A stretch of 64,000 nt of DNA, taken from assembly GCA_947494675.1 (NCBI GenBank), contig CANLVP010000001.1:682001-746000 (forward strand). The letters are read 5' to 3'. This DNA comes from an uncultured Paracoccaceae bacterium. GTDB taxonomy: Bacteria > Pseudomonadota > Alphaproteobacteria > Rhodobacterales > Rhodobacteraceae. Made by a program: the position numbers and the translations under genes. The notes under the pieces are model-generated. The model ran no database searches. It was not told the origin of the DNA and was given only the letters and a program-made list of their open reading frames with translations. Below are positions 27,849 to 64,000 of the stretch, one piece after another (the stretch's first letter is position 1; each line of letters starts with the position of its first letter).

Positions 27849-28268
27849 TTAGTCTTCCGCTGCGTCAAATTCCGCCAGACGGGCCTTGTCAGCGGCGCCT
27901 TTTGCGTCGACATCGCGGTCGACGAATTCGATGATCGCCATTGGTGCCATGTCGCCATACCGGAAACCGGCCTTCATGACGCGGACATAGCCGCCCTGAC
28001 GGTCCTTGTAGCGTGGGCCCAGAACTTCAAACAGTTTGGCAACGTGCATGTCCTGCTTGAGGCGCGATGCGGCCTGACGGCGGGCGTGCAGATCGCCGCG
28101 CTTGCCCAGTGTGACCAGCTTGTCGATGACGCGCTTGAGTTCTTTTGCCTTCGGCAAAGTTGTTTTGATTTGCTCATGTTCGATGAGCGAGCCTGCCATG
28201 TTCGCAAACAGCGCCTTACGGTGCTCATGTGTGCGGTTGAGGCGGCGGTAACCACGTGCGTGACGCAT
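27849..28268 (-). CDS. rplQ: 50S ribosomal protein L17
   Basis: The 139-residue L17 begins [20 protein letters not shown] and contains [23 protein letters not shown]-like residues, matching the family along its length. The C-terminus is acidic (FDAAED). It is the last gene of the alpha operon, 115 bp after rpoA across a strong hairpin. Confidence 0.97.
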
Positions 28269-28355
28269 GATGAAGTCTCCATTTCGTATTAGGGTGGGTT
28301 GTGCGCTGCGTAGACGCCAACTCCGTTATTGGGGCACCATGCCCGGGTCGTGATC

Positions 28356-28375
28356 GGGCGGGGACACCCCCGCCC
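28356..28375 (-). terminator. perfect hairpin between rpoA and rplQ
   Basis: GGGCGGGG (28356-28363) and CCCCGCCC (28368-28375) form an 8-bp stem with a four-base loop just after the rpoA stop. There is no T tract, so it more likely stabilises the rpoA end or adjusts rplQ expression than terminates. Confidence 0.6.
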
Positions 28376-28383
28376 AGATTTCT

Positions 28384-29400
28384 TTAGAACTGGTCTTCGA
28401 ATTTCTTGGCCAGATCTTCGATGTTGTCTGGTGGCCAATCTTCGACGTCCATACCAAGGTGCAGACCCATGCCGGACAGGACTTCTTTGATTTCGTTCAA
28501 AGATTTCCGGCCAAAGTTTGGCGTGCGCAGCATCTCGGCTTCGGTTTTCTGGATCAGATCACCGATGTAGACGATGTTGTCGTTCTTGAGGCAGTTGGCG
28601 GAACGCACAGACAGCTCAAGCTCATCAACCTTCTTCAGCAGAAGCGGGTTGAATTCCAGACCGTCGTCGTCCTGACCAGCAGAGGCGGACTCAGGCTCAT
28701 CAAAGTTGACGAAGATCGACAGTTGGTCCTGCAGGATGCGTGCAGCATAGGCCACAGCGTCGTCCGGCGTGATAGAGCCATCGGTTTCGACCTTCATGGT
28801 CAGCTTGTCATAGTCGAGCACCTGACCTTCGCGGGTCGGCTGCACGTCATAAGACACCTTTTTGATTGGCGAGTAGATAGCGTCGATCGACATCATGCCG
28901 ATGGGCGCATCTTCTGGCTTGTTCTTGTCCGCAGACACATAGCCCTTGCCGGTGTTGACGGTCAGTTCCATGTAAAGGTCAGCGCCATCGTCGAGGTGAC
29001 AGATCACGTGTTCCTTGTTGAGGATCTCGATGCCAGCGGTTTCAGAGATGTCGCCAGCGGTCACAATGCCAGGGCCTTTGGCCTGAACGCTCAGACGCTT
29101 GGGGCCTTCGACTTCCATGCGGATCGCGACGCCTTTGAGGTTCAACACGATGTCAGTGACGTCTTCACGCACACCGGCGACGGATGAAAACTCGTGCAGC
29201 ACGTTGTCGATTTGCACGGCCGTAATCGCGGCCCCTTGCAGTGACGACATCAGGATGCGGCGCAGCGCGTTGCCCATTGTCAGACCAAAGCCACGCTCCA
29301 GCGGTTCGGCAATCACAGTTGCCTGACGTGCGGGATCGTTGCCCGGCTTGACTTCAAGCTGGTTCGGCTTGATCAGTTCTGCCCAGTTTTTGTGGATCAT
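28384..29400 (-). CDS. rpoA: RNA polymerase alpha subunit
   Basis: The 338-residue protein starts [17 protein letters not shown], has the alpha N-terminal dimerisation domain ([22 protein letters not shown]) and the C-terminal domain ([18 protein letters not shown] and [13 protein letters not shown]) that contacts UP elements and activators. ATG 29400 follows GGAGGG; the upstream in-frame ATG at 29412 overlaps that site. Confidence 0.97.
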
Positions 29401-29465
29401 ATGTCCCTCCATACTTGTCTGCCTTCATGTCCAAAAAGGCAAACGCCCGAGGTTAAAATGACGGA

Positions 29466-29494
29466 TTGGGGCCGTGGACAAACCACGACCCCAA
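29466..29494 (-). terminator. hairpin between rpsK and rpoA
   Basis: TTGGGG-C-CGTGG (29466-29477) pairs with CCACG-A-CCCCAA (29483-29494) with one mismatch and a five-base loop. It lies directly after the rpsK stop without a T run. Confidence 0.55.
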
Positions 29495-29508
29495 GGCGTT
29501 GGGTGTGC

Positions 29509-29901
29509 TTAGACGCGGCGACGCTTTGGGGGGCGGCAACCGTTGTGCGCCATTGGGGTCACATCACGGATCGAGGTGATGTTGAAACCAACGGCAGCAA
29601 GCGCGCGCAGCGCACTTTCACGACCGGAACCGGGGCCCTGCACTTCGACTTCCAGCGTCTTGACGCCGTGCTCTTGTGCTTTCTTGCCAGCATCCTCGGC
29701 AGCCATCTGTGCTGCATAGGGTGTCGACTTCCGCGAGCCCTTGAACCCCATGGTGCCGGCAGACGACCATGAAATGGCGTTGCCCTGCACGTCAGAGATC
29801 AGGATCTTGGTGTTGTTGAAGCTTGAGTTGACGTGTGCAACCCCAGCGGCGATGTTCTTGGAGACCTTACGCTTACCGGTCCGGCGAGTATCACGAGCCA
29901 T
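29509..29901 (-). CDS. rpsK: 30S ribosomal protein S11
   Basis: This 130-residue S11 contains the conserved [37 protein letters not shown] and the C-terminal [11 protein letters not shown]. It follows rpsM by 12 bp. Confidence 0.97.
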
Positions 29902-29913
29902 GTCCGAGCCTCC

Positions 29914-30282
29914 TTATTTCTTCTTGCCAGCAATGGCCTTTGCAGGGCCTTTGCGTGTGCGTGCGTTGGTGTGTGTGCGCTGACCGCGGACAGGCAGGTT
30001 ACGACGGTGGCGCAGGCCACGGTAGCAACCCAAGTCCATCAGACGCTTGATGTTCATCTGTGTGTCGCGGCGCAGGTCGCCTTCGACTGTCAGGTGCTCA
30101 TCGATGTATTCACGGATCTTCAGGACTTCGGCGTCAGACAGGTCGTTGACGCGGCGGGCGAATTCGATGCCCGTGTCGTTGCAGATTTTCTCGGCCGTGG
30201 TCTGGCCGATACCGGTGATGTAGGTGAGGGCGATTGGAACCCGCTTTGCAGTCGGGATGTTTACGCCGGCAATACGTGCCAC
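29914..30282 (-). CDS. rpsM: 30S ribosomal protein S13
   Basis: This 122-residue S13 carries [39 protein letters not shown] and the basic tail. Alignment to the family places the start at GTG 30282, behind AAGGAA; the longer frame to 30333 has no family match. A GTG start is unusual for a highly expressed ribosomal gene and may be linked to translational control of the alpha operon. Confidence 0.95.
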
Positions 30283-30304
30283 GTGTGCAATTCCTTTTCG
30301 TTGC

Positions 30305-30404
30305 GGGTCCGTCGTTCCAGACCCTTTTTTCACAACGGAAGCCCGGGCTATGAAAGGCGCCGGGCTGCGTCATATTCAGGTGTTCAAATGGGGCGCGACC
30401 CCAT
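30305..30404 (-). promoter_or_regulatory. structured rpsM leader
   Basis: The 145-base leader between the promoter and rpsM can form ATGGGG/CCCCAT (30388-30393 and 30399-30404), a GC-rich element around AGCCCGGGCT (30340-30349) and CCGGGCT (30360-30366), and GGGTC/GACCC (30305-30309 and 30320-30324). The position matches where ribosomal proteins autoregulate the alpha operon; the binder is not known. Confidence 0.45.
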
Positions 30405-30427
30405 GCGATTCCCTTGCGGGATGCCGC

Positions 30428-30456
30428 TATCTAGGGGGTGGTGAACAAAGGGTCAA
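30428..30456 (-). promoter_or_regulatory. promoter of the rpsM-rpsK-rpoA-rplQ segment
   Basis: On the minus strand TTGACC (30451-30456) and TAGATA (30428-30433) are exactly 17 bp apart, with a C-rich end of the spacer. It lies just downstream of the inserted membrane-protein gene and restarts the alpha operon. Confidence 0.7.
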
Positions 30457-30473
30457 CCCCTTGCCAACTTCTC

Positions 30474-30806
30474 CTACAATTCCACCATCTTTACGCCGTT
30501 CAGCAGACGCTTGATGACCGCTGGCCAGTAGACGAGATAAGCCAGTCCGAGAGTGACAATTGTTAGCAACAACCAAACCAAAGCATGGCCCAAAATGTCA
30601 CCAAAATTCACTTGGACATCCAACTTCGCGATCTTTGCCCCATCGCCGTCTACGACGTAGGTCCGATTGATCGGCGCCTTGATGAAATAGTAGGGCAAAA
30701 CAAACAGCGCCAAACCAAGCGTCACGATAGACAAAATTATCCAGATAACCAGTTGGCCAATGGCTTCACTCAGCGAAAACTCGCATTTCAAATTCTTACC
30801 CAGCAA
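30474..30806 (-). CDS. small two-segment membrane protein, unknown
   Basis: This 110-residue protein has hydrophobic stretches at about residues 18-45 and 72-95, each containing IVTLGLA, so it looks like a short internal duplication around a soluble loop (NRTYVVDGDGAKIAKLDVQVNF). No function was recognised. It sits between adk and rpsM on the same strand as the ribosomal genes and is visibly AT-richer than they are, suggesting later insertion. GTCTTTAA-type upstream sequence gives no clear ribosome binding site. Confidence 0.6.
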   Translation of the reverse strand: MLGKNLKCEFSLSEAIGQLVIWIILSIVTLGLALFVLPYYFIKAPINRTYVVDGDGAKIAKLDVQVNFGDILGHALVWLLLTIVTLGLAYLVYWPAVIKRLLNGVKMVEL

Positions 30807-30862
30807 GATTAGTCCCGTCCTATCTAAAAAATAATAGCGGGTTGCTAGATGCTATGGATCAA

Positions 30863-31453
30863 TTACGCAAGCACGCCCTTAATCGAGGCGGCCACCTCAT
30901 CCATGCTGGCAAGCCCGTCAACGGAAACCAGATCGCCCTTGGCGTAGTAATAGCCAATCAGCGGTGAGGTTTGTTTGTAGTAGGCCAGGAGCCGGACTTT
31001 CAGGCTTTCCTCGTTATCGTCTGCGCGGACGGGCTGGCCTGCGGCCTCCGCCTCTTTCGCGCGACCGACGATGCGTTCGACGAGAACCTCATCATCCACC
31101 TGCAATTCAACCACGTGGTCCAGTGGCTGATCGAGTTCTTTGAGCAGGGCGCCCAGGGCATCGGCCTGCGCCAAGGTCCGGGGGAAGCCGTCAAAGATAA
31201 AGCCATTTCCGCCGCCGCCATCAACAGCGTCGCCTTCAAGCTGTTCGCGGATCAGGCCGATCACGATCTCATCGGTGACAAGGTTGCCTGCGTCCATAAC
31301 GGCCGCGACCTTATTGCCCATTTCAGTGCCCGAGGTGCGTGCCGCGCGCAGCATGTCACCCGTGGACAGTTGCACCATGCCACGTTCTTCGACCAGACGC
31401 TGTGCTTGCGTGCCTTTGCCGGCGCCCGGAGGCCCCAAAAGTATAATGTTCAT
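30863..31453 (-). CDS. adk: adenylate kinase, short type
   Basis: This 196-residue kinase starts [20 protein letters not shown] (P-loop residues 7-14), has [14 protein letters not shown] and [18 protein letters not shown]. The LID region is short and lacks the four-Cys zinc site, the usual alphaproteobacterial form. It converts AMP plus ATP to two ADP. The start overlaps the secY stop by 4 bases. Confidence 0.96.
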
Positions 31454-32814
31454 CGGCGTGCAGGCCCTTTCTTTTTGGCACCCGAACCGCGCTTGCCGCG
31501 CAGCTGGGACTTCTCAATCAACCCTTCGTATTGATGGGCGAGCAGATGTGACTGGATTTGTTGGATCGTGTCCATCCCTACGCTCACAATAATCAGAACC
31601 GAAGTACCGCCAAAATAGAAAGGAATAGATAATTGCGCCCGCAAAATTTCCGGCAGAAGCGCAACGAGCGCCAGATAGCCAGAGCCCAGAACGAGCACGC
31701 GGGTCACGACGTAATCAAGGTATTCCGCCGTCTTCTTGCCCGGACGGATGCCGGGGATAAACCCGTTCTGGTTCTTGAGGTTGTCGGCCACGTCATCAAC
31801 TTTGAACGCCACTTCTTTGGTGTAGAAGTAGGTGAAGAAGATGATCATCGCCGAGAAGAAGATCAGGTAGGCGGGCTGACCGGGGCCAAAGTAGGCCAGA
31901 ATGGTCGACATCACCGGGCTGTTGGAACCGCCGCTGAACGTGCTGATCGTGGTTGGCAGTAGCAACAAAGCTGAGGCAAAGATCGCCGGGATCACGCCTG
32001 CAGGGTTCACCTTAATGGGCAGGTGGCTGGATGAGCCGTCATAGACCTTCATGCCGCGTTGCTGGCGGGGGTATTGGATGTGGATCTTGCGCAAAGAGCG
32101 TTCCATGAAGACCACAAAGGTCAGGGTCGCAATGACCATTAGGATCACACCGACAATGACTGCGGGGCTGATCGCGCCAGACTGGCCCTGGCTGAGGAAC
32201 TGCGCCAGAGCGGCAGGGATTTCAGCGATAATGCCAACAAAGATGATCAATGAGATACCGTTGCCGATGCCGCGTGCGGTGATCTGTTCACCCAGCCACA
32301 TCAGGAACATGGTGCCGCCGACGATGGTAATCACGCAGGACGCCGTAAAGAAGAGGCCCGGATCAGAGGCCAAACCGCCCGCTTCCAGCGATTTTGCAAG
32401 GCCGTAGGCCTGTGCAGTCGCCAGCACCACGGTGCCGTAGCGGGTATATTGGTTCAGCTTGCGGCGGCCCTGCTCACCCTCTTTTTTCAGCTGCTTGAGC
32501 GGTTCCCACATGGAGCCCAGAAGCTGCACGATGATCGAGGCCGAGATATAGGGCATGATGCCAAGGGCAAAGATGCCCATACGGCTAAGCGCGCCGCCGG
32601 TGAACATCGACAGGATGCCGCCGATCCCCGCGGCTGCGTCTTCCATAAACGCCCGCAATTCAACGCCATCAATGCCCGGAACGGGAATGTAGGTGCCCAA
32701 GCGATAGACGATCAGAAGGCCGAGTGTAAACCAGATGCGCTGACGCAATTCGGTGGCTTTACCGAATGCGCCCCAGCTCATGTTGGCGGCCATTTGTTCT
32801 GCTGCGGATGCCAT
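31450..32814 (-). CDS. secY: protein translocase subunit SecY
   Basis: This 454-residue protein has ten predicted membrane segments and SecY hallmarks [44 protein letters not shown] and [27 protein letters not shown]. It is the channel of the Sec translocon. The C-terminal tail is basic ([14 protein letters not shown]). Confidence 0.97.
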
Positions 32815-32832
32815 TTTTGCCCCTTGTCAGGA

Positions 32833-32867
32833 AAACACCGCGCCACGGTTTCCCGGGCGCGGCGTTT
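32833..32867 (-). terminator. GC hairpin between rplO and secY
   Basis: CCGCGCC (32838-32844) pairs with GGCGCGG (32856-32862), extended by AAAC/GTTT across a mismatch, in the 102-bp gap after rplO. No U tract follows, so it is a candidate attenuator or processing site. Confidence 0.5.
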
Positions 32868-32916
32868 GGGAAATTGAGATGCTTATGTAAGCGACGCATG
32901 CGCCGCTCACAAGACG

Positions 32917-33390
32917 TTACTCTGCCGCTGCCGGTGTTGTGACGGTCAGTGAGCCGCCCGCTTTCTCGACCGCAGCAACCGCACCCTTGGAGGCGCCGGT
33001 GACGCTGATCTTAGCTTTGGCGGTAAATTCGCCTTTGGCCAGAACGCGGATACCGTCTTTTTTGCGGCGGATCAGACCGGATGCGATCAGCGCATCTTCG
33101 GTGATCTCTGCCTTGACGTCGATCTTGCCCGCGTCGATGAATTTCTGGATCAGGCCCAGGTTCACGACCGAGTAAGTCTTTGAATTGATGTTGTTAAAGC
33201 CGCGCTTTGGCAGGCGCTGGTACAATGGCATCTGACCGCCTTCGTAGCCTTTGATCGCCACACCCGAACGGGACTTTTGACCTTTGATACCGCGGCCACC
33301 CATCTTACCTTTGCCCGAACCCGGACCACGGCCAATGCGTTTCTTGCGGTGTGTTGCGCCTTCGTTGTCGCGCAGTTCATTCAGTTTCAT
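32917..33390 (-). CDS. rplO: 50S ribosomal protein L15
   Basis: This 157-residue L15 starts [29 protein letters not shown] and has [18 protein letters not shown] and the C-terminal [11 protein letters not shown]. The ATG at 33390 follows AGGAG; the longer in-frame start lies in the leader. It heads the rplO-secY-adk segment. Confidence 0.97.
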
Positions 33391-33694
33391 ATCGCTTCTC
33401 CTCTTGCCGGAAGACCCCACCGAAGCGATCGGAAAACGGGGCACACGGCGTTGCATTGAGTCGAAATCGTAACCCCGACTAGCGGCGTATAGCGGGGTGG
33501 GTGTGGTGGATCAAGGGGGCAGCCGGATTTGTTTAACGCCGTTAAGAATAAGGCAAAAACCGATGGCACAGCCCATACACAAGTGATGCACAACCCATGC
33601 GCATGATGGGCGCGCGAAAGATGGTTAATCGACCGTACGGTTACAGCCGTCCCATTGCGCGATTCCGGAGACGATTGCCGCGCTTTTTGCCTGT
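33391..33694. other. 304-bp gap between ilvA and rplO
   Basis: No gene was seen. The region holds the rplO promoter (33486-33514), its leader, a perfect TTAACG-C-CGTTAA palindrome (33533-33545) and a second palindrome ACCGTACGGT (33632-33641). No T-tract terminator for ilvA was obvious. Confidence 0.6.
33486..33514 (-). promoter_or_regulatory. promoter of the rplO-secY-adk segment
   Basis: TTGATC (33509-33514) and TATACG (33486-33491) on the minus strand are separated by exactly 17 bases of C/A-rich sequence, 96 bp upstream of the rplO ATG. Confidence 0.75.
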
Positions 33695-34909
33695 TCAGAC
33701 GCCATCCAGATCGCACCGCAGCCGGAATCCTTCGTCACGCAGAGTGGTGACGATGGTGCGGACGTGGTGGGCGTCGCGGGCTTCGATGACGACGTCGAGT
33801 TCGGCTTGTTTGAGGCTGACCGATTGCATCATGCGCTGGTGGATGACCTCGATCACGTTGGCACCGGCCTCGCCGATGATGCGGCTGATGGTGGAGAGTT
33901 GGCCGGGGGTGTCGTCAATTTCGAACGTCAGGCGGGCGATGCGGCCGTCGCGGACGAGGCCGCGCAGGATCAGGGTTGAGAGCAAGCGGCTGTCGATATT
34001 GCCGCCGCAGATCACAAGACCGACCTTTTTGCCTTTGAGTTCCGCGAGGTGTTCCTTGATCACGGCGAGGCCCGCGCCGGGGGCACCTTCGACGACCAGT
34101 TTTTCGTTGGACAGGAGGTCAAAGACTGCGTCCTCGATTGCGGCTTCGTCCACGGAGTAGACGTGATCGACGGTGTCACGGATCACCGCGATATTCGCAG
34201 CAGAGGGGGCGCGGACGGCGATGCCTTCGGCGAGGGTAGCGCCGTCGAAGTGAGTATCAGTGCCGTCAAACTGGGCTTTGACCGCGTCAAAGAGGTGAGC
34301 TTGCGCGCCGATCACCTGCACGTCCGGCTTGATACCCTTTGCGGCCACGGCCATGCCCGCGATCAGGCCACCGCCGCCAATGGGCACGACGATCACGTCG
34401 AGGTCGGGCTGTTGGTCGAGCATCTCAAGTGCAACGGTCCCCTGTCCTGCGGCCACGATGGGATCGTCAAATGGGTGCACAAAGGTCAGCCCGTCCGAGG
34501 CCGCGAGGTCGTTGGTAAAGGCCACACTGTCGTCAAATCCGGTGCCGTGCAGGATAACGCGGGCACCAAGCTCTTCGGTCCGTTGGACTTTGTTGAAGGG
34601 CGTGCCCTTGGGCATGACGATGGTGGCGGCGATGCCGAGGCGTTGCGCGTGATAGGCGAGGCCCTGGGCGTGGTTTCCGGCGGAACAGGCAATGACGCCT
34701 GCGGATTTTTGGGCGTCGGTCAGGGTCAGCAGCTTGGCCAGCGCGCCACGTGCCTTGAAGGCGTTGGTGTGCTGGAGGTTTTCCAGCTTGAGGTAAAGGT
34801 CGATGCCAAGGTGCAGCGACAGGCGGTTGGCGCGCACGGTGGGTGTCAGGATCGTCGCATCACGGATCGCGTCGTGGGCGGATTGGATATCGGCAAGTGT
34901 GAGCGACAT
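33695..34909 (-). CDS. ilvA: threonine ammonia-lyase
   Basis: This 404-residue PLP enzyme has KLENLQHTNAFKARGA (PLP Lys52), the glycine loop VPIGGGGLIAGMA, SAGNHAQGLA and a single C-terminal ACT-like regulatory domain (from about residue 325, FEIDDTPGQLSTISRIIGEAG). It deaminates threonine to 2-oxobutanoate, the first step of isoleucine synthesis. It is inserted between rpmD and rplO on the same strand but behind a strong terminator, so it needs its own promoter. Confidence 0.93.
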   Translation of the reverse strand: MSLTLADIQSAHDAIRDATILTPTVRANRLSLHLGIDLYLKLENLQHTNAFKARGALAKLLTLTDAQKSAGVIACSAGNHAQGLAYHAQRLGIAATIVMPKGTPFNKVQRTEELGARVILHGTGFDDSVAFTNDLAASDGLTFVHPFDDPIVAAGQGTVALEMLDQQPDLDVIVVPIGGGGLIAGMAVAAKGIKPDVQVIGAQAHLFDAVKAQFDGTDTHFDGATLAEGIAVRAPSAANIAVIRDTVDHVYSVDEAAIEDAVFDLLSNEKLVVEGAPGAGLAVIKEHLAELKGKKVGLVICGGNIDSRLLSTLILRGLVRDGRIARLTFEIDDTPGQLSTISRIIGEAGANVIEVIHQRMMQSVSLKQAELDVVIEARDAHHVRTIVTTLRDEGFRLRCDLDGV

Positions 34910-34933
34910 GGGCGGCCCCCCCTTGGTGAAACG

Positions 34934-34964
34934 AAAAACCCCGGACCATTGGCCCGGGGTTTTT
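34934..34964. terminator. intrinsic terminator between rpmD and ilvA
   Basis: AAAAACCCCGG (34934-34944) and CCGGGGTTTTT (34954-34964) form an 11-bp palindromic stem with T tracts in both directions. On the minus strand it ends the rpmC-to-rpmD segment. Confidence 0.85.
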
Positions 34965-34997
34965 ATTCGATTGCGGGTCGGCGCAGGGCTCCGCCCG

Positions 34998-35057
34998 TAA
35001 ACACATCAAACGCTCCACTGGAACGTTTGCCGGGCCAGTGGCCCGGTCATGTGTTTA
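34998..35057. repeat. three-way-junction-like inverted repeat at the rpmD 3' end
   Basis: TAAACACAT (34998-35006) and ATGTGTTTA (35049-35057) form a 9-bp outer stem. It encloses two hairpins: CAAACG/CGTTTG (35007-35012 and 35024-35029) and CCGGGCC/GGCCCGG (35030-35036 and 35040-35046). The structure includes the rpmD stop codon and lies before the terminator. Confidence 0.75.
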
Positions 35058-35243
35058 CCCCTTTTCTTCGATGATCTCGACGAGGTGGGGGATTTTGTTG
35101 ACCATGCCGCGCACGGAAGGGGTGTCTTCCAGCTCGCGGGTCCGGTTCATTTTGTTCAGGCCAAGACCGATCAGGGTCTGGCGCTGCTTTTCGGGGCGGC
35201 GGATCGGAGAGCCGATCTGCTTGACGACGATTGTTTTAGCCAT
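35055..35243 (-). CDS. rpmD: 50S ribosomal protein L30
   Basis: This 62-residue L30 starts [20 protein letters not shown], followed by [19 protein letters not shown] and [17 protein letters not shown], full-length for the bacterial type. It is 12 bp after rpsE. Its stop codon is part of a large inverted repeat. Confidence 0.97.
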
Positions 35244-35255
35244 ATCGCGGTCTCC

Positions 35256-35840
35256 TTATGCTTCTGCTTCAGCAGGTGCGGCATCGGCAGCCGGTGCATC
35301 ATCCCGCTTGGGGAGGATGTCGGCGACTTTCTTGCCACGACGCTGGGCCACGTTGCGCGGTGACTGCTCTTTTTGCAGGCCGTTCATGGTGGCGCGGATC
35401 ATGTTGTAGGGGTTGGCAGAGCCGATGGACTTGGACACGACGTCCTGCACGCCCAGCATTTCGAACACGGCACGCATTGGACCACCTGCGATGATCCCGG
35501 TACCTTGTGGGGCCTGACGCATGACGACTTTACCAGCGCCGTGACGTCCTTCGACGTCGTGGTGCAGGGTGCGGCCGTCCTTGAGGGCGACGCGGATCAT
35601 CTGGCGCTTGGCTTGCTCAGTGGCTTTGCGGATCGCTTCTGGCACTTCTTTGGCTTTACCTTTGCCAAAGCCGACGCGGCCCTTTTGGTCACCGACAACG
35701 ACGAGGGCTGCGAAACCGAAGTTCTTGCCGCCTTTGGTTGTCTTGGAGACCCGGTTGATGGCGACCAGACGGTCGGCAAACTCGGGTGCTGCTTCTTCAC
35801 GGCGGCCGCGGCCACCCCGGTTGTTATCACGTTCTGCCAT
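35256..35840 (-). CDS. rpsE: 30S ribosomal protein S5
   Basis: This 194-residue S5 has the conserved [30 protein letters not shown] and [24 protein letters not shown]-like region. The C-terminal 15 residues form an Ala/Asp/Glu-rich tail ([15 protein letters not shown]) beyond the conserved fold, like the longer tail seen on L3 in this window. Confidence 0.96.
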
Positions 35841-35918
35841 ATGTCTGGCGTCCTTTATGTCGTGGGCGTTTGAGGCCCGTTGTCCGACCGCAGTGCGTTG
35901 CCGCCCCGGTCATCGAGA

Positions 35919-35975
35919 GGTGCGTGCAAGCACACACCCTACAGGGGGTTGGTAGGGTGCGTGTTCACACGCACC
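35919..35975. repeat. REP doublet (REPIN-like) between rpsE and rplR
   Basis: Two GTAG-headed palindromes face each other: on the plus strand GTAG at 35952-35955 precedes GGTGCGTG-TTCA-CACGCACC (to 35975), and on the minus strand GTAG at 35942-35939 precedes a near copy ending at 35919. The spacer is 9 bp. It fills most of the 145-bp gap. Confidence 0.75.
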
Positions 35976-35985
35976 GCACCAGTTC

Positions 35986-36351
35986 TTAGATCTTCAGACC
36001 ACCTTCACGGGCAGCGTCGGCCAGAGCCTTGACCTTGCCGTGAAAGAGGAAGCCACCACGGTCGAAATAAGCAACTTCGACGCCAGCCTTCTTGGCGCGT
36101 TCTGCGATTGCAGTACCCACCTTGGCAGCGGCTTCGAGGTTGTTCTTGCCAACCACGCCCAGGCCTTTTTCGAGCGATGAAGCGGACGCGAGTGTCACGC
36201 CGTTCACATCGTCGATCAGCTGGACGCTGATGTTTTTGCTGGAACGGTGCACGGACAGACGGGGGCGACCCACGTTTGCAGTGACTTTCCGCAGCTTGTT
36301 CCGAACGCGCATGCGGCGCTTCAGAAACAGTTGTCTCTTTGAATTTGCCAT
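35986..36351 (-). CDS. rplR: 50S ribosomal protein L18
   Basis: This 121-residue L18 begins [22 protein letters not shown] and has [20 protein letters not shown] and the C-terminal [24 protein letters not shown]. It binds 5S rRNA. It is separated from rpsE by a REP doublet, the only large gap inside this segment. Confidence 0.97.
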
Positions 36352-36362
36352 GTTTTGCGTCC

Positions 36363-36896
36363 TTACTTCTTCTTGCCTTCTTTGCGGAAGACATACTCGT
36401 CCTTGTACTTGATACCCTTGCCTTTATACGGCTCGGGCTTGCGCCATTCGCGGATGTTTGCCGCGACCTGACCCACAAGCTGCTGGTCGATACCTTCCAC
36501 AGAGATTTCAGTTGGCTTGTCGGCCTTGACCGTCACGCCTTCTGGCACCTCAAAGTTGACGTCGTGGCTATAGCCCAGCGACAGCTTCAGGGTGTTGCCC
36601 TGCATCTGTGCCCGGTAACCAACACCGCTGATCTCAAGCTCTTTCTTGAAGCCGTTTGTCACGCCTTCAACAAGGTTTGCGACCTGTGTGCGGCTCATGC
36701 CCCACTGCTGGCGCGCACGCTTGGATTTGCCACGGGGTTCAACGGAGACGGCATTGCCTTCTACGCTGAGCGTGACGTCGTCTGTCGCCTTGAACGTGCG
36801 GACGCCCTTGGGGCCCTTCACTTCGATGGTCTGACCGGAGACTTTCGCCTCAACCCCAGAGGGCAGGTCGACCGGTTTTTTACCAATACGAGACAT
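36363..36896 (-). CDS. rplF: 50S ribosomal protein L6
   Basis: This 177-residue L6 starts [19 protein letters not shown] and has [24 protein letters not shown] and [14 protein letters not shown]. The start at 36896 gives the family's N-terminus; upstream in-frame codons overlap rpsH and were rejected. Confidence 0.97.
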
Positions 36897-36906
36897 GTCA
36901 GCCCCC

Positions 36907-37299: not shown

Positions 37300-37311
37300 A
37301 ATTGTTTCTCC

Positions 37312-54553: not shown

Positions 54554-54577
54554 CTCAATTCTCAACCGGGTGCTGCC

Positions 54578-54619: not shown

Positions 54620-54642
54620 GTCACACTGGGGTCGTTCCAAAA

Positions 54643-58602: not shown

Positions 58603-58974
58603 TTACTTCGGACGCTTGGCGCCGTACTTGGAGCGGCGCTGCTTACGATCTTTGACGCCTTGGGTATCCAGAACACCACGCAGGATGTGGTAACGGACAC
58701 CGGGCAAATCTTTCACACGGCCGCCACGGATCAGAACAACAGAGTGTTCCTGCAGGTTGTGGCTTTCACCGGGGATGTAAGAAATGACTTCGTAACCGTT
58801 GGTCAGGCGCACCTTGGCAACCTTACGCATGGCCGAGTTCGGCTTTTTCGGTGTGGTTGTGTAAACACGTGTGCATACACCACGCTTCTGTGGGCAGCCT
58901 TCCATGTGCTGCGACTTGGAGCGTGTGACTTTTGGCTGGCGCGGTTTGCGGATCAGCTGCTGAATCGTTGGCAT
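58603..58974 (-). CDS. rpsL: 30S ribosomal protein S12
   Basis: This 123-residue S12 starts [21 protein letters not shown] and has [22 protein letters not shown] and the invariant loop [30 protein letters not shown]. Lys codons at TPKKPNS and the GRVKDLPG loop are the wild-type (streptomycin-sensitive) residues. The ATG at 58974 gives the family N-terminus; a longer frame is basic nonsense. Confidence 0.98.
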
Positions 58975-59196
58975 CGTTTGATGTTCCCATCTCTTCACAT
59001 ATGCGCCCAGAGTGGACGCGGGGGTTTCAAAAATGCCCTGCGAGACCCGCAAAGCACAAAAATTCCGCAGTCGAACCCTTACCGGAGGTTCGGTGCGGTT
59101 GGGTATCCAGAGGAACAAACCAGCATTAGGTCGGTTCTTGGCCACTTCAACTTTGATTTCGGACGTTTGGCAGAAGCCTCAGGCCCGGATGAGCGG

Positions 59197-59225
59197 CGTA
59201 TAGAAGGAGTCGGTTTGCCTGTCAA
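59197..59225 (-). promoter_or_regulatory. promoter of the rpsL-rpsG-fusA-tuf segment
   Basis: A perfect TTGACA (59220-59225) and TATACG (59197-59202) on the minus strand are exactly 17 bp apart. It is the strongest match among the six ribosomal segment promoters and leaves a leader of about 220 bases before rpsL. Confidence 0.8.
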
Positions 59226-59241
59226 CAGCCCGCCCCACGGG

Positions 59242-60141
59242 CTAGCGCAGGCGGCCCATCTGGCGTTGCGGCGTGCGTTTCAGGCGTGCCTCGCGGTAGA
59301 GCGTAAAGAGGCCCGTTGCCACGATGATTGCTGCACCAATGAGCGTGACAGCGTCGGGAAATTCGCCAAAGGCGAGGTAGCCCAGGATGATTGCCACCAC
59401 GAGGCTGGTGTAGCGGAATGGCGCGACAAAGCTGATCTCGCCCACGCGCATGGTCTGGACCGAAAAGACATAGCCGCAGACAAGGCAGATCATCGCGCCC
59501 GAGAGCAGCCCCATGATCGGCCATGTCACCGTGGCCCAAGGCGCAAAGGTCGATCCGATCCCGGAAAACACCGTCACACCGATAGACGCGGTCAAAGCCA
59601 CCGTGACGGAGGGAACCGCCGCTGAAAGCGGACGCGCGCAGAGATCGCGGATCGCGACAAAGGCCACGGCCCCAAGGGCATAAAACGATGCGGAGGTGAA
59701 CCCCTCGGCCCCCGGTTGGATGATGAGCAACACGCCTGCAAACCCCACAAGGATCGCCAGCATTCGTCGCCAGCCAATCGCCTCACGAAAGACAATCGCC
59801 CCGGCAAGCGTGATGGTCAGGGGCAGTGACTGCAGGATCGCTGACAGGTTCGCCAAGGGCATCGTGCGCAGGGCCGACAGGAAAAACACGGTGCTGATCA
59901 GCTCCGAGAGGCTACGCAGCACGATCAGGACCCAGTCCTTGCGGGAGAATGCAAAGCGGAGCTGGCCGAGGATGTGGCACAGCACGATCAGGCAGAGTGT
60001 GATCCCAAGCCCGCGCAAGAACGTTGCTTGAAAGACGGGCACGTCCAAGAGGACCAATTTCATGAAGCCATCGTTGATCACAAAGGCCGTCATGGAACCG
60101 GCCATCAGGGCCGCGCCGCGCATGTTGTCTGTCAGTGCCAT
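59242..60141 (-). CDS. DMT-superfamily transporter (EamA)
   Basis: This 299-residue protein has about ten membrane segments in two EamA repeats, with GLGITLCLIVLCHIL, ALRTMPLANLSAILQSLPLTITLAGAIVFREAIG in repeat 1 and GEISFVAPFRYTSLVVAIILGYLAFGEFP in repeat 2. It should export or import a small polar metabolite; the substrate is unknown. It lies between the desaturase gene and the rpsL promoter, on the same strand. Confidence 0.9.
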   Translation of the reverse strand: MALTDNMRGAALMAGSMTAFVINDGFMKLVLLDVPVFQATFLRGLGITLCLIVLCHILGQLRFAFSRKDWVLIVLRSLSELISTVFFLSALRTMPLANLSAILQSLPLTITLAGAIVFREAIGWRRMLAILVGFAGVLLIIQPGAEGFTSASFYALGAVAFVAIRDLCARPLSAAVPSVTVALTASIGVTVFSGIGSTFAPWATVTWPIMGLLSGAMICLVCGYVFSVQTMRVGEISFVAPFRYTSLVVAIILGYLAFGEFPDAVTLIGAAIIVATGLFTLYREARLKRTPQRQMGRLR

Positions 60142-60182
60142 AGCGCTGGCCTATCAGCCCGCCCTACCCTGCGCCAGCATCG

Positions 60183-61169
60183 TTATTCTGCCGGATGCAG
60201 CGCCTTTTCGGACCAGATATCGCCAAAGCGAACCATGCGGCCTTGGTCTTCGTCCCAAAGCTTCCACTGGATGCACTTCAGTGCCTCCCACGCGCCGAGG
60301 CGTGTTGGTGTCAGATGCGGCGACAGCGCGACATGACACGCTTTCAGCCGATATGCCGGGACCATGGGGTTCAGGTGGTGCAGGTCGTGGTAGGCAAAGT
60401 TGAAGGTCATGAAGTCAAAGACCGGGCCAAGATCGAGGACGGAGGCGCCTTTCAGGCAGCCTTCTTCGAAGTCGTAATCGGGCGCCGAGGACCAATAGGT
60501 TTCTTCGTGGTTGTGACCAACGTAGACCATGAAAACCCCAAGGCAGGCGGTGATCACGGCGGCAATCAGGAAGAACTTGAACGCCGTCAGCCCGCCGATC
60601 AGATAGACGCTGAACCACAACACGGCCATCAGCACATTCTGGATCAGCACATCAACGAGCCCGGTTTTGAGCGCGTTTTTGGGGAACCGGTAGCGGATGA
60701 AGATGATAAAGAGCGGCCCGATCACAAAGATCACCGGCGCAGAGCGATAGATGCGGTAATAGACGCGGCCCCAGAACCCGGCGGCTTTGTATTGGGCGAC
60801 GGTCCAGGTCAGAACCTCATGCGCCTCCATCCGGTCAAGGTTGCCGATATGGGCATGGTGCTGGTTGTGATTGTAGCGCATCGCGTGGAAGGCGTTATTG
60901 GTAAAGGCCCCCAGCAGCACGCCACTGATCCGGTTCACGGTGCGCGAGGTGAAATAGCTGTTGTGGCCATTGTCGTGCTGGATGCCAAACAGACGGATCG
61001 ACGCGCCTGTGAACATCAGAACCGCGACGGCCATCACCAGCACATTGCCATAAAAGACCGTGCCAAGCGTGATCGACGCCACATAAAGCGCCAGTGAAAC
61101 CAAAAGATGAAAAGTCCCGACAACATTATCGGGCGACGCATAGACCTGCGTCATTTTACGGATACGCAT
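60183..61169 (-). CDS. membrane fatty acid desaturase
   Basis: This 328-residue membrane enzyme has the three His boxes of the desaturase/hydroxylase family: HDNGHNS (from residue 65), HNQHHAH (from residue 101) and HDLHH near the C-terminus, with four or so membrane segments in between. It would introduce a double bond or hydroxyl group into a lipid or carotenoid. ATG 61169 follows GGGGAA. The lipid substrate is not evident. Confidence 0.82.
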   Translation of the reverse strand: MRIRKMTQVYASPDNVVGTFHLLVSLALYVASITLGTVFYGNVLVMAVAVLMFTGASIRLFGIQHDNGHNSYFTSRTVNRISGVLLGAFTNNAFHAMRYNHNQHHAHIGNLDRMEAHEVLTWTVAQYKAAGFWGRVYYRIYRSAPVIFVIGPLFIIFIRYRFPKNALKTGLVDVLIQNVLMAVLWFSVYLIGGLTAFKFFLIAAVITACLGVFMVYVGHNHEETYWSSAPDYDFEEGCLKGASVLDLGPVFDFMTFNFAYHDLHHLNPMVPAYRLKACHVALSPHLTPTRLGAWEALKCIQWKLWDEDQGRMVRFGDIWSEKALHPAE

Positions 61170-61280
61170 TGCTTCCCCATCAGCAAAACATGGTGGCCGC
61201 TTAATAAGGCGCGACCTTGGGGTGGACGATAGGGCCAAGAGTTGAGGCAATCAAGTCAGGCAAACCCGACCTCTAACCGC

Positions 61281-62138
61281 TTAGAATGTCAGTGCAATCG
61301 CGGCGCTATAACTTGGCCTGTCGTCGTTGGGCTTTTGCGTGGCAAGTTGCAGATCAAACCGGTCAGAGAGCGGGGTCGTGACACCCAAGGTCAGATCGGT
61401 TTGCCCGCCCTCGCGTTGGCGCAGGATGACTGTCGCGGTGGGCCCTTGGGTCCAGCGTCTGGTCGCAAAAACCTCTGCCATGCGGGGCAGACCATTGGCG
61501 GCGGGGTTGAAGAGACCGAGACCGTAGGAATAGTCGCCCACCTCTGCGGTTGCTTGGGCCTTGGTGTTCCATGTGATCGCATCGTTTTCGGCCACAGCCT
61601 CTGCCGCGACGGCGAATGAAAACTCCCCGCGGTGTTGGGTGAGGCCAAAACCGGCAATCGTTACGTCTTGGTTTGGAACGCCGTGGAGGGACGCATAGGC
61701 GCGGCCAGTTCCAAAATTGCTGGCGAGGGATGCGCCGTAAGGCAGGAAATCAGATTCAAACATCGTGCCATAGGTGGCGCGACTGCGGCTGAGGCCGATG
61801 TCGTTCAAGGCTTGGCGCGGCATCACGGCGGTTAGGGCAGAGGGTGCGACAAGGTCGTAGGCGGGCCGTGGAAAGCCCAAGCGGGTTTCGATGTCGCCCG
61901 CCTGAAAGGTCAGATTGGCGTAGGTTTCATGCAAGCGGCCCACGACGCCGAACATCCCAAGCTCTGCCCCCCACGGTCCATAGGTCGCGCCAAGGGTGAA
62001 ATCACCAAAGGCAAACCCTTCGTCGGTGCCACCCGACAAGCCACCAAGCGCAATGACGCCGTCGGCAAAGCGGTCTGCCTGTGCGGGCGGGGTTGAGAGA
62101 CTGAGGGTGGCAATCATTGCCAGGGAGAAGCAACGCAT
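61281..62138 (-). CDS. probable outer-membrane beta-barrel protein
   Basis: This 285-residue protein starts with a Sec signal peptide (MRCFSLAMIATLSLSTPPAQA). The mature part is rich in alternating hydrophobic/Gly-aromatic strands (FTLGATYGPWGAELGMFGVVG, TWNTKAQATAEVGDYSYGLG) and ends in a terminal Phe (AIALTF), the usual recognition signal for outer-membrane barrel assembly. No specific porin family was recognised. ATG 62138 was chosen to expose the signal peptide; the frame extends upstream to 62219. Confidence 0.65.
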   Translation of the reverse strand: MRCFSLAMIATLSLSTPPAQADRFADGVIALGGLSGGTDEGFAFGDFTLGATYGPWGAELGMFGVVGRLHETYANLTFQAGDIETRLGFPRPAYDLVAPSALTAVMPRQALNDIGLSRSRATYGTMFESDFLPYGASLASNFGTGRAYASLHGVPNQDVTIAGFGLTQHRGEFSFAVAAEAVAENDAITWNTKAQATAEVGDYSYGLGLFNPAANGLPRMAEVFATRRWTQGPTATVILRQREGGQTDLTLGVTTPLSDRFDLQLATQKPNDDRPSYSAAIALTF

Positions 62139-62218
62139 TGGAATAACACATGAAAAGCGATTGATCTGAGAATTACAGGTCCGGGCGGCCTTGCCAAGAC
62201 CGTCACTTGCAAAAAGCA

Positions 62219-62249
62219 AAAGGCCCCCGGATTTTCGCCGAGGGCCTTT
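62219..62249 (-). terminator. rpoC terminator
   Basis: AAAGGCCC (62219-62226) pairs with GGGCCTTT (62242-62249); on the minus strand TTTTGCTTTTTGC follows. It lies 24 bp after the rpoC stop. Confidence 0.85.
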
Positions 62250-62273
62250 CTTAGATTGTTCTTGAGGCGCGAT

Positions 62274-64000
62274 CTATTCGTCGCGTGCCTCTGGCGTGTC
62301 CACGATCATCTGATCGAACTCGTCCCCACCGACGACATCGTCTGCCATCTCTTCGGGGGCGGGTGCGGCAAGGGCTGCGGCTTGTTCAGCCTCTTCCCGG
62401 CGCGCTTCGATCACGACGTTATCGCGGCCAGCAGCGATCTTGCGCACATTGCTGGTCGCACCACCGGTCCCGGCAGGGATCAGACGGCCCACGATGACGT
62501 TCTCTTTCAGACCGACCAGTTTGTCCCGCTTACCCTGAACGGAGGCTTCCGTCAGAACGCGCGTTGTTTCCTGGAACGACGCGGCAGAGATGAAGCTGCG
62601 GGTTTGCAGCGACGCTTTGGTGATACCCAACAAGATCGGCTCACCCTGCGCAGGGCGATCACCCCGTGCGAGTGCCTTTTCATTGGCTTCATCAAACTCG
62701 GCCTTATCGACAGTTTCGCCCTTGAGCAGAACCGTGTCACCGCTGTCCTGAATCTCCCACTTCTGGAGCATCTGGCGCACGATAACTTCGATGTGCTTGT
62801 CGTTGATCTTCACGCCCTGCAGACGATAGACGTCCTGCACTTCGTCGATCATGTAGTCGGCCAAAGCCTCGACCCCCATGACGCCCAGAATATCGTGGGG
62901 TGCAGGGTTGCCGTCCATGATGTAGTCGCCCTTTTGGACAAAATCACCTTCCGCGACGGGAATGTGCTTACCCTTGGGCACCATGTATTCGACTTTGACG
63001 TCAGCATCGTCGGCGCTTTCGATCGCGATGCGGCGCTTGTTCTTGTAGTCCTTGCCAAAGCGCACGTAGCCATCGATTTCGGCGATGATCGCGTGATCCT
63101 TTGGACGGCGGGCTTCGAACAATTCCGCAACCCGTGGCAGACCACCGGTGATGTCCTTGGTTTTGGCACCTTCGCGCGGAATACGGGCAACCACGTCACC
63201 GGCTTGGATGTCTTCGCCATCTTCAACGGACAGAACCGCATCGACCGACATGGCATAGGACACGGGGTTGCCGTCATCCTTGACCATCGGCTCACCATCG
63301 CTGCCTGCGATGATGATTTTCGGTGCAAGTTCGTTGCCCTTGGGTGCAGCACGCCAATCCGACACGATGCGCTGGGTCATGCCCGTTGCATCATCGGTGT
63401 CCTCGCGCACGGCGATGCCGTTCACCAGGTCGACGTATTTCACCTTACCGGCTTTCTCGGCGATGATCGGCAGTGTGAATGGATCCCATTCAAACAGCTT
63501 GTCACCACGGTGGATGTCAGCGCCTTCTTTCACGAAGACCTTAGAGCCATAGCCGACCTTGTGGTTGGCACGCTCTTCACCGTTTTCGCCCATGATCGCG
63601 ATGACCATGTTCCGGCCCATCACGACCTGTTCACCGGCAGTGTTTTCCAGCAACGAGGCGTTGCGGAATTCAACCTTACCGGGCTGGGACGCTTCAAGGA
63701 ACGACTGCTGACCACCCTGCGCAACACCGCCGATGTGGAATGTCCGCATCGTCAGCTGCGTGCCGGGTTCACCGATGGACTGCGCAGCGATAATGCCGAC
63801 AGCCTCGCCGATGTTCACGCGTGTGCCGCGTGCAAGGTCACGCCCGTAGCACATGGCGCAAACGCCATCTTCGGCTTCACAGGTCAGCGGGCTGCGGATG
63901 CGCATCTTGGCGATGCCAGCCTGATCAATCATGTCAGACTTGCGCTCGTCAATCAGCTCACCCAGCTCGACCAGAACCTCATCCGTACCGGGCTTCAGCA
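62274..64000 (-). CDS. rpoC: RNA polymerase beta' subunit, C-terminal part
   Basis: About 575 C-terminal residues are in the window; the gene runs past the right edge. Conserved segments include [43 protein letters not shown] (trigger-loop region and bridge contact), [19 protein letters not shown], and [31 protein letters not shown] near the end. The extreme C-terminus is acidic. It directly precedes, on the same strand, the inserted OMP-desaturase-DMT genes and the rpsL segment. Confidence 0.97.

What the first reader, a model, noticed from the sequence alone, without database searches (positions are those of the whole stretch)
27849..64000. Ribosomal super-array in canonical order but cut at six points
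All str, S10, spc and alpha genes are present in the expected order, yet unrelated genes separate rpoC/rpsL, tuf/rpsJ, rplW/rplB, rplP/rpmC, rpmD/rplO and adk/rpsM. Cuts fall between genes and each fragment has its own promoter and mostly a terminator. This suggests repeated insertion at tolerated junctions, with ribosomal fragments kept as independent units that need separate dosage control.
Basis: partly seen in the sequence, partly recalled or inferred. Interest (0 to 1): 0.75.

Follow-up and report, generated by a model that had tools for sequence, protein, structure and literature searches.

The report
Ribosomal array split into movable modules
In this marine bacterium's family the long universal run of ribosomal protein genes is cut, nearly always at the same six joints, into blocks that look like separately switched units, and unrelated genes come and go in the joints; one joint carries a conserved control RNA that I could not find described.

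Summary
In detail: the window (Rhodobacteraceae, Yoonia-like) carries str-S10-spc-alpha genes in canonical order, interrupted at exactly the six named junctions. Comparison shows a family rule, not a quirk. In 55 Rhodobacteraceae genomes, one per genus, gaps over 300 bp occur in 149 of 292 cases at these six junctions and in 2 of 1267 at the other 25; 15 of 15 counted array breaks also fall there. Nine other Alphaproteobacteria are tight at rplW/rplB, rplP/rpmC and rpmD/rplO. Cargo turns over fast, with two frequent residents: a 2OG-Fe(II) oxygenase (rplP/rpmC) and an EamA transporter (rpoC/rpsL). Permissive junctions are enriched in terminators and promoters; comparably wide closed gaps are not. 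Control RNAs mark three starts: the known L2 leader before rplB, an Alpha_RBS-like hairpin before rpsM, and a covarying leader before rpmC without an Rfam match (114 of 149 family genomes, one copy each). Insertions track leader presence. Best reading: the super-operon was re-partitioned into autonomous transcription units whose boundaries tolerate insertion and rearrangement. Published RT-PCR at rpmD/rplO in Ruegeria pomeroyi agrees. Separate dosage control remains inferred. New variant of a known kind.

The parts
58603..58974 (-). rpsL (S12), first gene of the str block
   Evidence: TIGR00981
54643..58512 (-). rest of str block: rpsG 58042-58512, fusA 55909-58026, tuf 54643-55818
   Evidence: TIGR01029, TIGR00484; EF-Tu read directly
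50368..52452 (-). block rpsJ-rplC-rplD-rplW
   Evidence: NCBIfam equivalogs
45600..48234 (-). block rplB-rpsS-rplV-rpsC-rplP
   Evidence: NCBIfam equivalogs
35055..39395 (-). block rpmC-rpsQ-rplN-rplX-rplE-rpsN-rpsH-rplF-rplR-rpsE-rpmD
   Evidence: NCBIfam equivalogs; rpmD taken as ORF 35055-35243 by place, its tblastn matches keep that place in relatives
30863..33456 (-). block rplO-secY-adk (rplO start probably further in than 33456)
   Evidence: NCBIfam equivalogs
27849..30282 (-). block rpsM-rpsK-rpoA-rplQ
   Evidence: NCBIfam equivalogs
58975..62273 (-). junction 1 rpoC/rpsL: ORF 61281-62219, fatty acid desaturase 60183-61250, EamA transporter 59242-60141
   Evidence: PF00487, PF00892; EamA in 36 of 49 open gaps of relatives
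52453..54642 (-). junction 2 tuf/rpsJ: ORF 53726-54427, acyltransferase 52625-53596; neither matched in the compared stretches
   Evidence: PF01757
48235..50367 (-). junction 3 rplW/rplB: ORFs 49816-50130, DUF2200 49378-49734, 48915-49160, 48429-48905
   Evidence: PF09966; the other three ORFs have no family match
39396..45599 (.). junction 4 rplP/rpmC: AraC regulator 44252-45289(-), lipase/esterase 43176-44141(-), response regulator 42552-43109(+), HWE kinase 41719-42741(+), DUF4334 40996-41487(+), 2OG-Fe(II) oxygenase 40397-41005(+), ORF 39571-40374(+)
   Evidence: Pfam
33457..35054 (-). junction 5 rpmD/rplO: threonine ammonia-lyase 33695-34909
   Evidence: NF005600; close copy in 5 of 6 genomes of the genus
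30283..30862 (-). junction 6 adk/rpsM: DUF6693 protein 30474-30806
   Evidence: PF20403
48237..48304 (-). L2-Alphaproteobacteria leader RNA before rplB
   Evidence: RF03142, 51.7 bits, gathering 37.8
39418..39454 (-). rpmC leader RNA, covarying, no Rfam match
   Evidence: no Rfam match
30250..30343 (-). Alpha_RBS-like leader before and into rpsM; core hairpin 30300-30336
   Evidence: RF00140 30 bits, E 1.4e-5, below gathering 38; covarying hairpin
59197..59225 (-). promoter-like TTGACA-17-TATACG before rpsL
39473..39501 (-). promoter-like TTGCCA-17-TATACG before rpmC
33486..33514 (-). promoter-like TTGATC-17-TATACG before rplO
30428..30456 (-). promoter-like TTGACC-17-TAGATA before rpsM
   Evidence: read in sequence
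52537..52606 (-). promoter-like TTGCGG-17-TATGCC (52578-52606) and GC hairpin with T tail (52537-52563) before rpsJ
   Evidence: read in sequence
62218..62250 (-). terminator-like hairpin after rpoC
54522..54554 (-). terminator-like hairpin after tuf
   Evidence: read in sequence
50313..50347 (-). terminator-like hairpin after rplW
45527..45558 (-). terminator-like hairpin after rplP
   Evidence: read in sequence
34934..34960 (-). terminator-like hairpin after rpmD
   Evidence: read in sequence

Best explanation
Within the Rhodobacteraceae the universal ribosomal super-operon was re-partitioned into autonomous transcription units: str | rpsJ-rplW | rplB-rplP | rpmC-rpmD | rplO-adk | rpsM-rplQ. 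Most units end in a terminator and start with their own promoter, and three of the six start with a control RNA (L2 leader, the rpmC leader found here, an Alpha_RBS-like hairpin). Once a joint is such a boundary, a foreign gene landing there no longer cuts transcription, so insertion, loss, inversion or translocation at the joint is nearly neutral, while the other 25 joints, inside transcription units, stay closed by purifying selection. Ordinary chromosomal genes therefore accumulate and turn over in the six joints. Shown: shared junctions, variable cargo, terminator/promoter/leader enrichment, intact inverted or moved blocks, covariation of the rpmC leader. Inferred: that boundary came before insertion, neutrality, and that each leader autoregulates its own block.
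For: Gaps over 300 bp: 149 of 292 at the six junctions, 2 of 1267 at the other 25 (55 genomes, the window's included). The 15 array breaks counted, in 14 genomes, fall at these junctions; whole blocks rplB-rplP and rpmC-rpmD are inverted or relocated intact. Terminators follow rpoC, rplW, rplP and rpmD in 57-74% of gaps (shuffled 2-9%), against 0-11% in six comparably wide gaps that took one insert in 296 cases. TTG-17/18-TATA promoters: rpsL 37/51, rpmC 24/45, rplO 26/38; 0-1 per control gap. rplW/rplB is open in 25 of 45 genomes with the L2 leader (33 over cut-off, 12 weaker) and 0 of 8 without (p 0.0035); 45 of 45 leaders end within 60 nt of rplB. rplP/rpmC is open in 32 of 38 with the rpmC leader and 1 of 10 without (p 2.6e-5). 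rpmC leader: 97% of cells paired, 39 two-sided changes vs 10.9 shuffled, 114 of 149 genomes, one copy each. Cargo strand is unbiased (87:80). Ruegeria pomeroyi RT-PCR: no amplification joins cargo to rpmD or rplO (PMC3305630, section 11 read).
Against: No canonical promoter before rplB (1/46). At tuf/rpsJ promoter-like sites accompany inserts (6/11 inserted, 0/42 empty), so there the boundary may have come with the insert rather than before it. tuf/rpsJ and adk/rpsM have few terminators (25% and 15%), and adk/rpsM few real genes. rpoC/rpsL is open in outgroups too. No structured leader was found before rpsJ and no known RNA before rplO. Genomes are not independent: leader and insertion could both follow the tree, and no phylogeny-corrected test of the association was made. 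The 35 of 149 genomes without a model match were not examined one by one. The 'no terminator in tight joints' count is partly built in, since gaps under 40 bp were not scanned. Two inserts do lie at other joints (rpsL/rpsG 404 bp in G022, fusA/tuf 660 bp in G133).
Confidence: 0.8

Rival explanations
1. One ancestral insertion opened each joint and the operon was split by it; promoters, terminators and leaders arose afterwards as repair, and later cargo is replacement in an already broken site.
For: tuf/rpsJ: promoter-like sites only with inserts (6/11 vs 0/42). rpoC/rpsL and rplP/rpmC need only 3 and 6 changes on the tree and keep frequent residents. The early-branching G106 already has a 6.3 kb insert at rplP/rpmC.
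Against: Leader-bearing joints without insert exist (rplW/rplB 20 genomes, 10 of them with a match below the cut-off; rplP/rpmC 6 genomes), and terminators are found in joints without insert (10/22 and 5/12). rplW/rplB state changed at least 12 times. Loss of an insert could also explain these.
Confidence: 0.3
2. The six joints are site-specific integration hot spots for mobile elements.
For: High turnover of contents at fixed places; a few recognisable mobile genes: one transposase and one Doc-like toxin among the 25 of 59 PHROG families listed.
Against: 129 sampled cargo proteins match 98 Pfam families, none in more than 3 proteins; the 25 listed include no integrase or transposase (the other 73 families were not shown). 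The joints share promoter and terminator features; no tRNA was found in the window. Repeats at the insert ends were not searched.
Confidence: 0.05
3. Insertion is neutral wherever the intergenic gap is wide enough; no transcriptional boundary is needed.
For: Joints without insert in the family are often 60-300 bp wide, wider than most intra-block gaps.
Against: fusA/tuf, rpsQ/rplN, rplR/rpsE, rplO/secY, rpsK/rpoA and rpoA/rplQ have median gaps of 78-132 bp yet took an insert over 300 bp in 1 of 296 cases (one genome counted twice), and they largely lack terminators and promoters.
Confidence: 0.05
4. The arrangement is an ordinary fixed ancestral gene order of the family, with unrelated genes that simply belong there.
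For: 2OG-Fe(II) oxygenase lies in 90 of 97 open rplP/rpmC gaps and EamA in 36 of 49 open rpoC/rpsL gaps outside the window.
Against: Of 18 window cargo genes, 5 have no match above 60 bits in any of 143 other stretches (o53726, acyl3, o48429, lip, p39571) and 3 have one (AraC, o49816, DUF6693). L004, 99.4% identical over five ribosomal proteins, lacks both tuf/rpsJ genes and the AraC and lipase genes.
Confidence: 0.05

Closest known systems
[quoted passage not shown] passages and section 19 read)
   Same: Genes enter between concatenated operons, selection for co-location relaxes, operons may then separate fully; 77 of 115 events there trace to gene insertions.
   Different: Of the four worked insertions that I saw, three lie at rpoBC/str or str/S10 and one inside the rpoBC operon (rplL/rsmC). 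Here rplW/rplB, rplP/rpmC and rpmD/rplO cut inside the classical S10 and spc operons, in a different class of bacteria, at high frequency, and two of these three coincide with control RNAs.
Variable region between ribosomal operons (rpmD/rplO) of Ruegeria pomeroyi and other roseobacters (PMC3305630; passages and section 11 read)
   Same: Same junction, variable size and content, putative terminator after rpmD, RT-PCR negative across both ends. The paper also reports variable genes inside sucCD and sdhCDAB.
   Different: One junction of the six; no control RNA and no general rule in what I read.
L2-Alphaproteobacteria ribosomal leader, RF03142 (PMC7247131; passages read)
   Same: Found before rplB in the window and in 45 of 53 family genomes searched, 33 over the cut-off.
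   Different: Its link with an insertion joint is not mentioned in the passages I saw.
Alpha operon ribosome binding site, RF00140
   Same: Same place (rpsM start), weak but significant match.
   Different: Below the curated threshold: 20 of 40 genomes match at E 0.001, none over the cut-off; there is no rpsD between rpsM and rplQ here.

Membership tests
str-S10-spc-alpha ribosomal cluster | canonical gene order on one strand | tested here: met
str-S10-spc-alpha ribosomal cluster | contiguous operons without foreign genes | tested here: not met
   six gaps of 583-6207 bp
L2-Alphaproteobacteria leader RF03142 | score above gathering, directly upstream of rplB | tested here: met
   51.7 vs 37.8 bits at 48304-48237
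Alpha_RBS RF00140 | score above gathering cut-off | tested here: not met
   30 vs 38 bits in the window; over cut-off in 0 of 40 genomes
Alpha_RBS RF00140 | binds S4 and represses the operon | not testable with these tools
   needs binding assay
ribosomal protein leader (rpmC) | conserved place upstream of a ribosomal protein gene | tested here: met
   48 of 48 genomes checked, of 114 with a match: 25-40 nt before the L29 domain, same strand
ribosomal protein leader (rpmC) | covarying secondary structure | tested here: met
   13 pairs, 97.1% paired, 0 of 500 shuffles reach the covariation score; members were picked by a search that required the outer helix
ribosomal protein leader (rpmC) | bound by a product of its own operon | not testable with these tools
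   ligand unknown
site-specific integration hot spot | recombinase or att repeats recurring at the site | tested here: inconclusive
   no integrase among the 25 of 98 Pfam families shown for 129 cargo proteins; att repeats not searched
gene cassette exchange by flanking homology or gene transfer agent | recombination tracts in flanks around exchanged cargo | tested here: inconclusive
   rplD-rplW-rplB 5' half is 96-98% identical to G002 while rplC and rpsS are 88-92%, but rpsJ and rplP are high too; no formal test

The most novel reading that the evidence does not exclude
A whole bacterial family has replaced the classical S10/spc/alpha control scheme by a modular one with separate control RNAs for its blocks, including an undescribed rpmC leader that governs the eleven-gene rpmC-rpmD unit. 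The blocks are the units of genome rearrangement, and the joints act as docking sites through which gene cassettes of mostly under 4 kb are exchanged by homologous recombination in the highly conserved flanks, possibly delivered by the family's gene transfer agents.
Probability: 0.2. Interest if true: 0.8.

Novelty: new variant of a known kind. Interest (0 to 1): 0.55.

Why it matters
The ribosomal array is a textbook case of conserved gene order. A family in which it is cut repeatedly at fixed points while 25 other joints stay closed gives a natural experiment on what holds operons together: the data point to transcription-unit boundaries rather than gap width. It also yields a covarying candidate regulator RNA present in most of the sampled genera of a large marine and phototrophic bacterial family, testable in standard Ruegeria or Rhodobacter laboratory strains.

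Tried and rejected
Site-specific integration: no common recombinase seen in the listed part of the sampled cargo. Gap width alone: rejected by six gaps that are wide but closed in 295 of 296 cases. A structured leader before rpsJ: RNAalifold gave no consensus fold on A3 and Rfam only chance-level matches; dropped, although a GC hairpin stands there in the window. A known RNA before rplO: none beyond chance. The stock sigma-70 scan was uninformative. Recombination tracts: only a hint. Insert sizes (309 of 338 open gaps at most 4.4 kb) fit gene transfer agents, whose capacity I recall as about 4 kb, but do not test them. My first insert ORF list used minus-strand shadow ORFs for part of rplP/rpmC; corrected after. 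An early fold of a 5'-truncated rpmC alignment (A5) missed the outer helix; replaced by A6. Literature searched for prior reports: (open-access full text only).

Rows dropped or doubled: the 59 family stretches are 55 genomes; four are second stretches of G014, G050, G133 and G153, and G050 is counted twice at several joints (one search gives the counts without the double). G002 and G005, same genus as the window, are left out of those counts but included in the leader table and the tree. The stretch of G001 (L084) ends at tuf and was not used. rpoC was not found in the stretch of five genomes (G050, G106, G039, G145, G114), so rpoC/rpsL was not judged there. In one search five listed ends (G128, G150, G114, G022, G153b) are ends of the fetched stretch or contig and were not counted; G050b repeats G050, G014b shows the second end of the inverted block in G014, and three outgroup breaks (O172 rpoC/rpsL, O181 tuf/rpsJ, O189 adk/rpsM) lie at the same joints. 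One of the 15 counted ends, G002, is a separation of about 25 kb in the same orientation. Before the rpmC model was built, sequences without the motif and one doubtful hit (G106) were left out of A6, so the outer helix's paired percentage is partly built in, the inner helix and the two-sided changes less so. Searches ran with stricter filters and may miss weak matches. The ORF clusters include the outgroup gaps and some spurious ORFs. Cargo Pfam and PHROG scans used 129 of the 167 ORFs of 150 aa or more outside the four largest clusters.

Full report
What is there. The window belongs to a Rhodobacteraceae genome close to Yoonia (rplB 100% identical to an uncultured Rhodobacteraceae contig, 98% to Yoonia ponticola). 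The array runs on the minus strand in canonical order from rpoC to rplQ. Gaps in the window are 3302, 2193, 2136, 6207, 1601 and 583 bp at the six named junctions and at most 148 bp elsewhere. Inserted genes include an EamA transporter, a fatty acid desaturase, an acyltransferase, DUF2200, an AraC regulator, an esterase, a histidine kinase with response regulator, a 2OG-Fe(II) oxygenase, threonine ammonia-lyase and DUF6693.

Family comparison. I measured all 31 gaps in 55 Rhodobacteraceae genomes, one per genus and the window's included, in 10 other Alphaproteobacteria, and in 80 loci around rplB from titled records plus one further locus of G005. In the family set (59 stretches, one genome counted twice at several joints) gaps over 300 bp occur at rpoC/rpsL 47/50, tuf/rpsJ 10/54, rplW/rplB 23/51, rplP/rpmC 33/48, rpmD/rplO 28/47 and adk/rpsM 8/45. 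Without the double count the totals are 149 of 292 at the six junctions and 2 of 1267 at the other 25; the two are rpsL/rpsG in G022 and fusA/tuf in G133. The rplB loci, chosen for closeness to the window, show gaps over 300 bp at the same junctions and at no other, though they cover the outer ones in few cases (rpoC/rpsL and adk/rpsM once each). In the outgroups rplW/rplB, rplP/rpmC and rpmD/rplO are 0 of 9 open (median gaps 19, 22 and -14 bp), whereas rpoC/rpsL is 5 of 7 open, tuf/rpsJ 1 of 9, adk/rpsM 1 of 8, and rplO/secY 1 of 9 (307 bp). So three cuts inside classical operons look special to the family in this sample, and rpoC/rpsL does not.

Rearrangements use the same joints. In 14 family genomes the array is broken, inverted or separated by more than 20 kb, 15 ends in all: rplP/rpmC 5, rpmD/rplO 4, tuf/rpsJ 2, rplW/rplB 2, adk/rpsM 2. 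In G014 the block rplB-rplP is inverted beside rpmC, in G039 the block rpmC-rpmD is inverted, in G050 the block rplB-rplP is missing from between rplW and rpmC. In G005 rpmC lies about 320 kb from rplP. A block that persists after inversion is hard to explain unless it is transcribed from its own start.

Turnover. On a tree of 22 concatenated proteins (64 genomes, 55 of the family; FastTree) the insertion state changed at least 12 times at rplW/rplB, 8 at rpmD/rplO, 7 at adk/rpsM, 6 at rplP/rpmC, 5 at tuf/rpsJ and 3 at rpoC/rpsL. 869 candidate ORFs of 80 aa or more from the open gaps of all three sets fall into 611 clusters, 535 of them singletons (some ORFs are spurious shadows). L004, with 99.4% mean identity over five ribosomal proteins, lacks both window genes at tuf/rpsJ and the AraC and esterase genes at rplP/rpmC. 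Threonine ammonia-lyase has a close copy in 5 of 6 genomes of the genus, in the four others a few kb past rpmC as in the window, and none in the sixth. Two residents are frequent: the 2OG-Fe(II) oxygenase in 90 of 97 open rplP/rpmC gaps and EamA in 36 of 49 open rpoC/rpsL gaps outside the window. Of 129 sampled cargo proteins, 98 Pfam families matched, none in more than three proteins; of 167 cargo ORFs of 150 aa or more, 87 lie with and 80 against the array.

What marks a permissive joint. In gaps of at least 60 bp, a hairpin with T tail follows the upstream gene in 59% (rpoC), 57% (rplW), 69% (rplP), 74% (rpmD), 25% (tuf) and 15% (adk), against 0, 0, 3, 11, 9 and 0% in fusA/tuf, rpsQ/rplN, rplR/rpsE, rplO/secY, rpsK/rpoA and rpoA/rplQ, which took one insert in 296 cases. 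TTG-17/18-TATA stands before rpsL in 37/51, rpmC 24/45, rplO 26/38, rpsJ 6/52, rpsM 6/45 and rplB 1/46; in the closed gaps 0, 0, 0, 0, 1 and 0. In the window TTG-N20-TATACG occurs only before rpsL, rpmC and rplO (0.08 expected). The stock sigma-70 scan did not show these sites.

Control RNAs. The L2 leader RF03142 precedes rplB; it is found in 45 of 53 family genomes searched, 33 over the cut-off, and 0 of 10 outgroups, in 45 of 45 ending within 60 nt of rplB. rplW/rplB is open in 25 of 45 genomes with it and 0 of 8 without. Before rpsM a covarying hairpin (42 of 46 sequences, four early-branching genera without it left out) matches Alpha_RBS at 30 bits, below its cut-off; 20 of 40 genomes match at E 0.001, none over the cut-off. 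Before rpmC I found a leader with an outer helix CACCGG/CCGGTG and compensating forms CACCAG/CTGGTG, CACTGG/CCAGTG and CACGGG/CCCGTG, and an inner helix around GGGTGACCC...GGGGCC. By motif it is in 107 of 130 stretches (one of them doubtful) and in none of 9 outgroups. On 43 sequences 97.1% of cells pair, 39 cells changed on both sides (10.9 in shuffles), covariation score 0.285 vs 0.141, 0 of 500 shuffles reach it, and sliding lowers it to 0.143 or less. A covariance model finds one copy in each of 114 of 149 family genomes and 4 matches in 241 genomes drawn from the class, three of them in this family and one weak. In 48 of 48 genomes checked it lies 25-40 nt before the L29 domain. Rfam has no match there beyond chance in the window and none over threshold in seven other stretches. 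rplP/rpmC is open in 32 of 38 genomes with the leader and 1 of 10 without.

Mechanism. The simplest account is that these joints are transcription-unit boundaries. Inside a unit a foreign gene cuts off expression of essential genes downstream; at a boundary it does not. Published RT-PCR in Ruegeria pomeroyi agrees for rpmD/rplO: two inserted genes are co-transcribed with each other but no amplification joined them to rpmD or rplO, and a terminator was predicted (PMC3305630; section 11 and passages read). Boundary before insertion is suggested by joints without insert that carry leader and terminator but is not shown, and tuf/rpsJ may have gone the other way. Autoregulation by each leader is inferred from position and from known relatives.

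Prior knowledge. Insertions between concatenated ribosomal operons followed by separation are described for Gammaproteobacteria and Bacilli (PMC8046335; passages and section 19). The L2 leader is from PMC7247131 (passages); the part of its Table 1 that I saw, cut off after the first S4 rows, lists no rpmC leader. My searches of open-access text brought up no report of the six-joint rule or the rpmC leader in their listings; subscription papers were not covered.

Verdict. Observation confirmed; interpretation partly supported and sharpened. The general kind (insertion at operon boundaries) is known, so this is a new variant; the family-wide rule and the rpmC leader are the new parts.

Noticed in passing
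window 40397-41005 (+), and 90 of 97 open rplP/rpmC gaps of relatives: A 2OG-Fe(II) oxygenase (PF13759) lies in the joint after rplP in most of the family sampled. Since L16 is the substrate of the E. coli oxygenase YcfD (recalled), a ribosomal substrate is a cheap thing to test.
   Followed up: partly
window 60183-61250; L020, L024, L025, L029, L031, L074: The fatty acid desaturase at rpoC/rpsL belongs to an ORF cluster found in the rpoC/rpsL joint of 3 and the rplW/rplB joint of 5 genomes (matches in Ruegeria loci): the same cargo family in different joints.
   Followed up: partly
window 52537-52606: A promoter-like site followed by a GC hairpin with T tail just before rpsJ resembles an attenuator; the S10 leader of E. 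coli works by L4-induced termination (recalled).
   Followed up: no
G002 against the window, rplD to rplB: Nucleotide identity is 96-98% from rplD to the first half of rplB but 88-92% in rplC and rpsS, which may mark a recombination tract over the rplW/rplB joint; rpsJ and rplP are high as well, so this is weak.
   Followed up: no
many draft contigs, e.g. G007:C15, G048:C7: Many draft contigs in the family begin about 2.3 kb from rpsG, near the tuf gene, perhaps because tuf is present twice (not checked); surveys of this region on draft genomes lose the str/S10 link.
   Followed up: no
G041 and G062, upstream of rpmC: These two genera lack the rpmC leader motif but both show a CCCCCGGA...GGGGG hairpin-like stretch there, perhaps a replacement leader.
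   Followed up: no
PMC3305630, section 11: The paper reports variable, poorly conserved genes inside sucCD and sdhCDAB of roseobacters, so cargo in essential operons may be a wider habit of the group.
   Followed up: no
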